Translations under genes and position numbers: made by a program
Origin: Diadophis punctatus similis
Lineage: Eukaryota > Chordata > Lepidosauria > Squamata > Dipsadidae
Reading direction: 5' to 3'
Length of the DNA: 64,000 nucleotides
Assembly (NCBI GenBank): GCA_023053685.1
Contig: JALIGW010000028.1
Location: 7,352,501-7,416,500 of the forward strand
In this document: in pieces, positions 26,901-29,900 of the stretch
How the letters are laid out: the number at the start of each line of letters is the position of its first letter
Numbering within the stretch: the stretch's first letter is position 1
The notes under the pieces: model-generated
Databases searched by the model: none
What the model was told of the DNA's origin: nothing
The model's input: the letters and a program-made list of their open reading frames with translations, nothing else

Positions 26901-29900
26901 ACCTTTGCAGCATCCCCAGGATCGTGTGATCAAAATTCAGATGCTTGTCAATTGCTTCATACTTATGACCGTTGCTGTGTCCCAAGGTCATGTGACCATC
27001 TTTTGCAACCTTCTGACAAGCAAAGTCAATGGGAAAGCCAGATTCACTTAACAACCGGGTTACTAACTTATCAATTGCAGTGATTCACTTAACAATTGAG
27101 GCAAAAAAAGGTTGCAACATGGAGCAAAACTGACTTAAAAAATGTCTCGCTTAACCACAGAAATGTTGGGCTCAATTGTGGTCATAAGTCGAGGACTACC
27201 TGTACTTGTAAAATGTCAAAAATCAAGTTTGTGACTCTTGGTGCTGTAAAAGAAGTTTTGGCATTTCAAGGGTTCAGATGCAACATGAATTTTTACACTA
27301 GGCTGGATGTTGGATAACACCAGGGGTCCCCAAACTTGGCAACTTTAAGACTTGTGGACTTTAACTCCCAGAATTCTCCAGCCAGCATAGCTGGCTGGAG
27401 AATTCTGAGAGTTGAAGTCCACAAGTCTTAAAGTTGCCAAGTTTGAAGACCTCTGGATAACATGATCACAACATCTCTTCCAACTATTTTGTTATATGAT
27501 TCTGTGAATACATTGTATGAATATTCTTGACAACAAATGCTGCAAGATGATCCATTTTGGTTGTGGGATCCTATGTTGCTCATGGGAAGATAGATGCCAT
27601 TTAGTGAGCTCATGGTCAAAATGAAATACATGTTGGGGTTATATGTTGCTCCAGTTCACTGCCATTTTAGTACAATGGTTCCTTTTGCTGGATGATGAAC
27701 TAAATTTAAAACCACATGCTATAGACATTCCTACCCATTGCTTCAGATAGGTCAATCAAAATTTGTTTGTTCATATTGTGGAGTAACATACCACTAATTT
27801 TCAAAAGATAAAAAGACAGCCTTTTTGAAAACATCCAGAGGCTGTCTTTTTATCTTTTGAAAATTAGTGGTATGTTACTCCGCAATATGAACAAACAAAT
27901 TTTGATTGACCTATCTGAAGCAGTGGGTAGGAATGTCTATAGCATGTGGTTTTAAATTTAGTTCATCATCCAGCAAAAGGAACCATTGTACTAAAATGGC
28001 AGTGAACTGGAGCAACATATAACCCCAACATGGCAGTTGTTTGTTGGAAAGCAGTCTCAAACTGATTTGAGAACACACATGTAATTCCTTTCTAATTCCT
28101 TTCACTGCCTATGTGGATGCAGTGAGCCAAGTTCAGAAGGATCTCTCACTCAGATTGGAGTAATTGCATTAATCAGTCATTGCAGTAAAGGCACAACATC
28201 TTGCAGGTATTCAAACTGTTGAGAACAAACATCTACTTCACTCTTCTGAGCCATGGTGAAATCCAATTTTTTTTACTACCGGTTCTGTGGGCGTGGCTTG
28301 GTGGGCGTTGTGTGGCTTGGTGGGTGTGGCAGGGGAAGGATACTGCAAAATCTCAATTCCCACCCCACTCCAGGGGAAGGATACTGCAAAATCCCCATTC
28401 CCTCCCCATTCCAGGGGAAGGATAGTGCAAAATCCCCATTCCCACCCCACTCTGGGGCCAGCCAGAGGTGGTATTTGCTGGTTCTCTGATCGACTCAAAA
28501 TTTCAGCTACCAATTTTCTGAACTACTCAAAATTTTTGCTACCGGTTCTCCAGAACCTGTCAGAACCTGCTGGATTTCACCCTTGCGTCTTCTCCCATCT
28601 CATGCCTTCCCAGCCAGCATGGGAGGCAGTATGATGATGTACTTGAAGTTCAATGCATCAGGAAGGTACCAGGTTGGAGATGGCTGCCTTATATCTTTCT
28701 CTGAAATATGAGGGCCAGAGTATATTTTGAATTTTTTTTATTGTTAAGTGAGAATTACTTAAAATTAAAAAAAAAACAATTCCAAAATTCCAATATGCTA
28801 CTTTTAACGTATATTCTGCACTGTCCAACAAACCACTCCATGTTTCTTACTTCTGAGGATTAAATATTTTTAACACTTCTCTAATGACTGTGCTAGCTGG
28901 GAACTCTGAAAGATGAGCAAACCCATCTAGAAGACACCAGGTTAGAGAAAGTGCAACAGCAATTCATCAAAAATATCAAGAACAGAAACTGTCTCAACCA
29001 GTTCTAACTGCACTTCCTATTTCCCTCCTTACAAGGTTATGCTCAGACTGACAGAAACTCTTCAGATGACGAGATGTTTTGACTAATAGGCTTCAAGGAG
29101 CATTTAGAGATTGTTGACAGCCAGTCATCCTCATGTGATAGACAACACTAGCAAACTGACCAATCTAATAATATTGGCAGACAACTACTTCCTGGGGAAA
29201 TAGCAATTCAAAAGAAACTGAACCTCTATGGTTTCTCCATAGAGATGCCATCTTAATCTTAGAGTCAGATCAAGCTAGATCAACACTAGGGCAAAGGTTC
29301 TTAGATGCAGAAGGTCAGACACAAATCACTGCTTTCTGTCATAATATAATTGCAATCACCGAATCTTAGTGTCTAAATCAGCCTCACGTTTATCACAGTT
29401 CCCAACTTTAGAAGAGTCTTATCTTTAGATTGATCTACTGTTCTCTCCACAGCTGTCCTGGAAGGGACATAGAGGAAAAGGCTAAATGAAACCCCATACT
29501 GCCCCTCTGATATGGGTACCATAGAAAACACAGTTCATGTTCTTCTATATTGCCAGTTCTACAGTACATTCACCACCAGTTATTTATTTATTTATTTATT
29601 TATTAAATTTATATACCGCCCTTCTCCAGGGGACTCAGGGCGGTGAACAGCCAAGTAAAAAACATTAAAATACATTTAAACCAAGTAAAAACATTAAAAT
29701 ACATTTAAAATAAAATATTCAATATGGCCCTAATTTAATACAATTAAAATTTAGTAAAATTTTAAAATTTTAAAAACCCCAAAAACTTTTTCACGCCAGC
29801 CCGGCTTGATAAAAATAATGCGTCTTGAGGGCACGGCGGAAGGTGGACAGGTCGTGAATTGTTCTTAAGTCTGGAGGGAGCTGATTCCAGAGGGTGGGTG

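What the first reader, a model, noticed from the sequence alone, without database searches (positions are those of the whole stretch)
27629..28032. 193-bp-arm, 99% identical inverted repeat inside RHOV intron 1
The two arms are collinear without any indel and differ at two positions in 193, separated by 18 bp. It has no transposon-like ends or target duplication and no ORF of note, unlike the many MITEs nearby. In the RHOV pre-mRNA it would fold into a very long duplex, a possible substrate for ADAR editing or hairpin-siRNA processing. The near-identity means recent origin or ongoing gene conversion. A fold-back assembly artefact must be excluded.
Basis: partly seen in the sequence, partly recalled or inferred. 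Interest (0 to 1): 0.75.

Follow-up and report, generated by a model that had tools for sequence, protein, structure and literature searches.

The report
Single-copy fold-back duplication in RHOV intron
A 194-base stretch of otherwise unique DNA in an intron of a vertebrate RHOV gene has a backward copy right beside it, most likely from a replication slip, leaving a long hairpin that is a neat but known kind of mutation rather than a mobile element.

Summary
Arms 27629-27822 and 27839-28032 are 194 nt each, collinear, with 2 mismatches and a 16-nt spacer, in intron 1 of RHOV (minus strand). It does not behave as a MITE. In the window's own 1.78-Gb assembly the arm, and the 797-bp segment around it, match only themselves (one first-look candidate each), while the same search gave 1324 candidates (40 scored) for the hairpin MITE beside it and 3508 (40 scored) for a hairpin in RHOV intron 2. 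Five of six hAT-like hairpins in the window have 8-10-nt direct repeats at their ends, the miss being a diverged copy; this one has none. Best reading: a recent local inverted duplication of unique DNA by fold-back or template switching, probably neutral. Its RNA would fold almost completely (-343.8 kcal/mol), so ADAR editing is a plausible passive consequence; no function is shown. Twelve other 10-kb stretches held one more single-copy perfect palindrome, so the kind may recur in this genome. An assembly artefact is unlikely but untested: no reads or related genomes were available.

The parts
27629..27822 (+). left arm of the inverted repeat, 194 nt
   Evidence: matches only itself and its partner in the genome (first 193 nt)
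27823..27838 (.). 16-nt spacer (hairpin loop); its first 9 nt are the reverse complement of 27798-27806 in the left arm
   Evidence: a match of at least 9 nt in this geometry occurs at 141 of 20000 random positions
27839..28032 (-). right arm, reverse complement of the left with 2 differences
27738..27738 (.). mismatch 1: T here against G at 27923 (C when the right arm is read in reverse complement)
27779..27779 (.). mismatch 2: T here against G at 27882; the right arm has a CpG where the left reads TpG, as expected from CpG decay in the left arm
27457..28253 (.). single-copy segment that holds the inverted repeat, with repeats on both sides
   Evidence: genome, E up to 10; window
27312..27464 (.). 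neighbouring hAT-like hairpin MITE with a 9-nt end duplication; control for the copy-number and target-site tests, not part of the feature
   Evidence: the hAT label is recalled from the 8-bp duplications and end motif
32655..32853 (-). RHOV exon 1, coding part from the ATG read to the donor
10994..11053 (-). RHOV exon 2 (approximate ends)
8558..8998 (-). open frame holding the coding part of RHOV exon 3

Best explanation
A local inverted duplication of single-copy intronic DNA. During replication or break repair a nascent strand folded back on itself (or switched to the other strand of the fork), copied about 194 nt in reverse and returned to its original template, leaving a reverse-complement copy 16 nt from its source. 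The spacer is the fold-back loop. Since then two transitions, one probably a CpG decay, have separated the arms. In RHOV pre-mRNA the repeat would form a nearly perfect duplex of about 192 bp, which ADAR would be expected to edit if the gene is transcribed; I take this to be a passive by-product without selected function. Shown: arms, identity, single copy, lack of a target duplication outside the arms, intronic place, folding potential. Inferred: the replication-slip origin, which arm is new, recency, editing, neutrality.
For: The arm and its 797-bp context match only themselves in 1,779,491,602 bases, while two hairpin repeat families near by give 1324 and 3508 first-look candidates with the same tool, 40 scored in each. 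No direct repeat at the ends: the longest shared word is 6 nt and lies inside the arm, against 8-10 nt for 5 of 6 hAT-like hairpins of the window; words of 8 nt or more occur at 65 of 2000 random pairs of places. Arms are collinear without an indel and end in flanks that resemble neither the arm nor each other beyond shuffles. A second single-copy palindrome turned up in 120 kb of other sequence of the same genome: L008 6520-6789, arms 135 nt, 100%, of which about 87 nt are unique sequence mirrored about an (AT)n tract and followed by (AT)n again; there the order unique sequence, (AT)n, fold back, copy, return into (AT)n can be read off (inference). Template switching is a published source of perfect inverted repeats (PMC8794818 and PMC7954356, passages); fold-back inverted duplications with a spacer at the loop are published at larger scale (PMC3907307, passages).
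Against: No orthologous locus with one arm was available, so the event itself is not seen. Under the two simplest ancestral models without loss of bases the joins show 0-1 nt of microhomology; in PMC3907307, 13 of the 18 junctions without long repeats have 2-8 bp and the other five carry insertions. The largest switch pattern mentioned in the passages read of PMC8794818, which studies rRNA genes, is 59 bp, so 194 nt is long for the short-range form. No reads were available to exclude an artefact.
Confidence: 0.76

Rival explanations
1. Assembly or library artefact: a fold-back chimera carried into the assembly.
For: Near identity and a short loop are what fold-back chimeras show; no reads could be consulted. 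The second palindrome (L008) is 100% identical.
Against: Both flanks are single-copy sequence continuous with the locus; the arms stop at 194 nt; two differences lie between the arms, one at a CpG; the contig is 8.32 Mb long in an assembly that has a 321-Mb contig, so several reads should support the place (inference).
Confidence: 0.1
2. A young, very low-copy hairpin transposon (MITE-like) with inverted repeats of about 190 nt and a 4-bp CATG target duplication.
For: The terminal CATG of both arms is self-complementary and could be a target duplication; this genome has abundant hairpin repeats. Lack of a clear end duplication is not decisive: two repeat-derived hairpins of the window, 9735-10006 and 16371-16500, lack one too.
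Against: Found once in 1.78 Gb even at E up to 10 (strongly diverged copies could be missed); a self-complementary terminal tetramer is expected about 1 time in 16; I recognise no known terminal motif (recall); a family must arise before it spreads, and 1% arm divergence leaves little time.
Confidence: 0.07
3. A functional hairpin-RNA locus: the intron is processed into endo-siRNAs or a new miRNA and the arms are kept alike by selection.
For: 192 of 194 arm positions pair; folding energy -343.8 kcal/mol, z -41.
Against: No Rfam match in the window at gathering score; no other genome locus similar to the arm that could be a target (limited to what the first look can see); siRNA production from long dsRNA hairpins is inefficient in mouse fibroblasts and stem cells (section heading and passages of PMC6391682; start of abstract); youth explains the identity without selection.
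Confidence: 0.05

Closest known systems
Template-switch mutations that create perfect hairpins (PMC8794818, rRNA genes; PMC7954356, great apes; passages read)
   Same: A reverse-complement copy placed next to its source, giving a near-perfect stem in one event, without a mobile element.
   Different: Arm of 194 nt, against up to 59 bp for the largest pattern mentioned in the PMC8794818 passages; no ancestral sequence available to place the four switch points; hardly any microhomology under simple models.
Fold-back inverted duplications of human chromosomes (PMC3907307, passages)
   Same: Inverted copy separated from its source by a single-copy spacer that corresponds to the fold-back loop.
   Different: Those are large, many of them next to terminal deletions, with spacers of 766-70,466 bp; here 194 nt, interstitial, spacer 16 nt.
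Recombinogenic long inverted repeats as defined for Lirex (PMC5414712, passages)
   Same: Spacer under 20 bp and identity over 85%, the labile class; over 100 recombinogenic repeats are reported there for the human genome.
   Different: Arm-to-spacer ratio of 12.1 is below the 16 quoted there for strong recombinogenic ability.
hAT-like hairpin MITEs of this genome (for example 27312-27464; label recalled)
   Same: Long complementary arms and a short loop.
   Different: Five of six in the window have 8-10-nt end duplications, and the example has 1324 first-look candidates, 40 scored; this hairpin has neither.

Membership tests
MITE / terminal-inverted-repeat transposon | multiple dispersed copies with common ends | tested here: not met
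   1 first-look candidate in the genome against 1324 and 3508 for two control families
MITE / terminal-inverted-repeat transposon | target-site duplication | tested here: not met
   none outside the arms; 5 of 6 hAT-like control hairpins have 8-10 nt; the palindromic CATG at the arm ends cannot be fully excluded as one
template-switch / fold-back inverted duplication | arm is single-copy sequence with its reverse complement beside it and nowhere else | tested here: met
template-switch / fold-back inverted duplication | ancestral state with one arm in related genomes | not testable with these tools
   The genome search states that this genome has no relatives held
template-switch / fold-back inverted duplication | microhomology at the switch points | tested here: inconclusive
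   0-1 nt under models without base loss; the true ancestor is unknown; a 9-nt inverted repeat lies at the loop, seen at 141 of 20000 random positions, noticed after the fact
recombinogenic long inverted repeat (Lirex criteria) | stem over 30 bp, identity over 85%, spacer under 20 bp, ratio at least the mismatch rate | tested here: met
   194 nt, 99%, 16 nt, ratio 12.1 (criteria)
hairpin RNA / miRNA gene | small RNAs from the stem | not testable with these tools
   no expression data; Rfam gives no match at gathering score

The most novel reading that the evidence does not exclude
The repeat is the newborn stage of a vertebrate hairpin-RNA gene: a single 194-nt inverted duplication in an expressed gene's intron whose transcript is already edited or diced, in a lineage where fold-back palindromes of this size form often (two single-copy examples in the 184 kb scanned, one of them the given finding).
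Probability: 0.06. Interest if true: 0.6.

Novelty: new member of a known kind. Interest (0 to 1): 0.3.

Why it matters
It is a clean example of a long single-copy palindrome made from unique DNA rather than from a transposon, which helps to separate the two sources of hairpins in a genome crowded with hairpin repeats. If the second example reflects a general rate, this genome would be a good place to measure how often fold-back duplications of 100-200 nt arise and how long they last.

Tried and rejected
MITE membership: rejected on copy number and, less strongly, on end duplications. Similarity of the arm to its own flanks, either strand: no more than in shuffles; the best, an 18-nt stretch at 27564, is reached by 35 of 300 shuffles, the other three comparisons by 290, 160 and 153 of 300. 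Relation to the second long hairpin of RHOV (9735-10006): no similarity in the window search, and that one is a repeat family. Plasmid records: no match. A 24-nt arm word in viral and prokaryotic contigs: 0 stretches in each, exact matches only; this says little for a vertebrate. Fold-back primed by the 9-nt inverted repeat at the loop: rejected, because copying from it would give another register than the one seen (sequence; positions). Age: 2 of 194 differences give, with assumed (recalled) rates of 0.7-4 x 10^-9 per site and year, central values of 1.3-7.4 million years and a 95% span of 0.16-27; too wide to be useful, and invalid if the arms convert each other.

Full report
What is there. 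The window holds an inverted repeat with arms 27629-27822 and 27839-28032, 194 nt each, without an indel, with two mismatches and a 16-nt spacer. The longest exact inverted match within 1500 nt is 109 nt; in 30 of 30 simulated windows with the same first-order composition it was 12-16 nt. Both mismatches are T in the left arm against C in the reverse complement of the right arm; the one at 27779/27882 is a CpG in the right arm and TpG in the left, the usual direction of decay.

Place. The gene is on the minus strand. Its coding pieces are one that ends in DTFS (32656-32667) before a GT, then VQVLVDGAPVRIQLWDTAGQ near 11.0 kb, then EDFD...CFV within 8558-8998. Pfam calls Ras on the first and last piece, and the closest solved chain to the last is RHOU (2q3h). 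I name it RHOV from the recalled human protein and from a VPS18 frame near by. Intron 1 runs from about 32.65 to about 11.05 kb, and the repeat lies about 4.6 kb below the donor. The assembly is unnamed; that it is a squamate-like vertebrate is my recall of its repeat types, not a result.

Not a mobile element. The own genome was reached after several busy answers. The arm (193 nt) finds only itself and its partner in 1,779,491,602 bases and 419 contigs, with one first-look candidate. The whole 797-bp segment 27457-28253 finds only itself at E up to 10, again with one candidate. The tool warns that it skips very common words, so two controls matter: the hairpin MITE at 27312-27464 gave 1324 candidates, of which 40 were scored, and the hairpin at 9719-10022 gave 3508, of which 40 were scored. 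Strongly diverged copies could still be missed.

End duplications. Eight hairpins were tested. Five hAT-like ones have direct repeats of 9, 10, 9, 8 and 8 nt at or near their ends. A sixth, 16371-16500, which resembles them at about 74%, has none. The G+C-rich hairpin 9735-10006 has only a 5-nt word. The hairpin under study has only a 6-nt word that lies inside the arm. At 2000 random pairs of places the commonest longest word is 5 nt, and 8 nt or more occurs 65 times. Since two repeat-derived hairpins lack a duplication, its absence alone does not exclude a repeat; copy number is the stronger argument. A formal loophole is the terminal CATG, which is self-complementary.

How it arose. The best reading is a fold-back or template switch that copied 194 nt of unique sequence in reverse. 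Two simple ancestors are possible (right arm new, or left arm new); neither leaves more than 1 nt of microhomology at the joins if no bases were lost. A 9-nt inverted repeat, 27798-27806 and 27823-27831, brackets the inner switch point; such a match occurs at 141 of 20000 random positions, but it was noticed after the fact and would prime another register. Published human fold-back junctions show 2-8 bp of inverted microhomology in 13 of the 18 cases without long repeats; the other five carry insertions (PMC3907307, passages).

Is it alone? A palindrome scan of these 120 kb found 6 hairpins with at least 30 nt of non-simple arm. Two belong to a tandem satellite on L015. Three (L006, L009, L012) have arms of 42-61 nt and were not followed. 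One, L008 6520-6789 (C198:4006520-4006789), is a perfect palindrome with arms of 135 nt: about 87 nt of sequence mirrored about an (AT)n tract and followed by (AT)n again. Its arm is single copy (1 candidate). This looks like a fold-back nucleated in a microsatellite. In 16 further loci around repeat copies (51,029 bases, chosen by those repeats) the scan gave no further hairpin with arms of at least 100 nt and 97% identity, once a stretch of N was dropped. One in 120 kb is far too few to give a rate, but it suggests that such palindromes are not exceptional here.

What it does. As RNA the region folds to -343.8 kcal/mol, against -93.4 on average for 100 shuffles. In the RHOV-sense RNA the two mismatches are A opposite C; in the antisense RNA they are G-U pairs (from the bases). 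I expect ADAR editing if the intron is transcribed, and no further function; this is inference. In mouse fibroblasts and stem cells long dsRNA hairpins yield siRNAs inefficiently (PMC6391682, heading and passages; start of abstract). By the criteria printed for Lirex (PMC5414712, passages) the repeat falls in the labile class: spacer under 20 bp, identity over 85%, ratio 12.1. Palindromes over 200 bp with little or no spacer are described as hard to amplify and to keep in E. coli (PMC4057610, passages), which bears on how one would check this locus.

Literature. Eight searches were made. The search for RHOV with intron and inverted repeat gave one unrelated paper. The search with squamate, hairpin, inverted repeats and template switch found 121 papers holding at least three of the four terms; of the 10 listed none has the word squamate. 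I saw no report of this locus in those listings. PMC8794818, PMC7954356, PMC3907307, PMC5414712, PMC4057610 and PMC6391682 were seen as passages only.

Verdict. A real single-copy inverted duplication, probably recent; a new member of a known kind; modest interest. The artefact question stays open until reads are mapped.

Noticed in passing
L008:6520-6789 (C198:4006520-4006789 of the own genome): A perfect 135+135-nt palindrome in which about 87 nt of single-copy sequence are mirrored about an (AT)n tract and followed by (AT)n again; looks like a fold-back nucleated in a microsatellite.
   Followed up: partly
9735-10006: Second long hairpin in the RHOV transcript (intron 2): arms 128 nt, 92%, spacer 16; a G+C-rich hairpin repeat family with 3508 first-look candidates in the genome (40 scored), without a clear end duplication.
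   Followed up: partly
27312-27464, 30610-30763, 32315-32515, 37596-37747, 43726-43897: hAT-like hairpin MITEs (label recalled) with 8-10-nt end duplications, arms 56-67 nt and 93-98% complementary; the first has 1324 first-look candidates in the genome, 40 scored. A diverged relative at 16371-16500 shows no duplication.
   Followed up: partly
918-1839 and 28330-28452: Tandem repeat of a 41-42-nt unit (about 22 copies and 3 copies) beside the same interspersed element in both places, so the array may grow from a unit inside that repeat.
   Followed up: no
L015:594-10000: Satellite array, period 101/203, about 93 copies of the short unit, that contains perfect inversions of its own unit (arms 116-119 nt, spacer 5 nt).
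   Followed up: no
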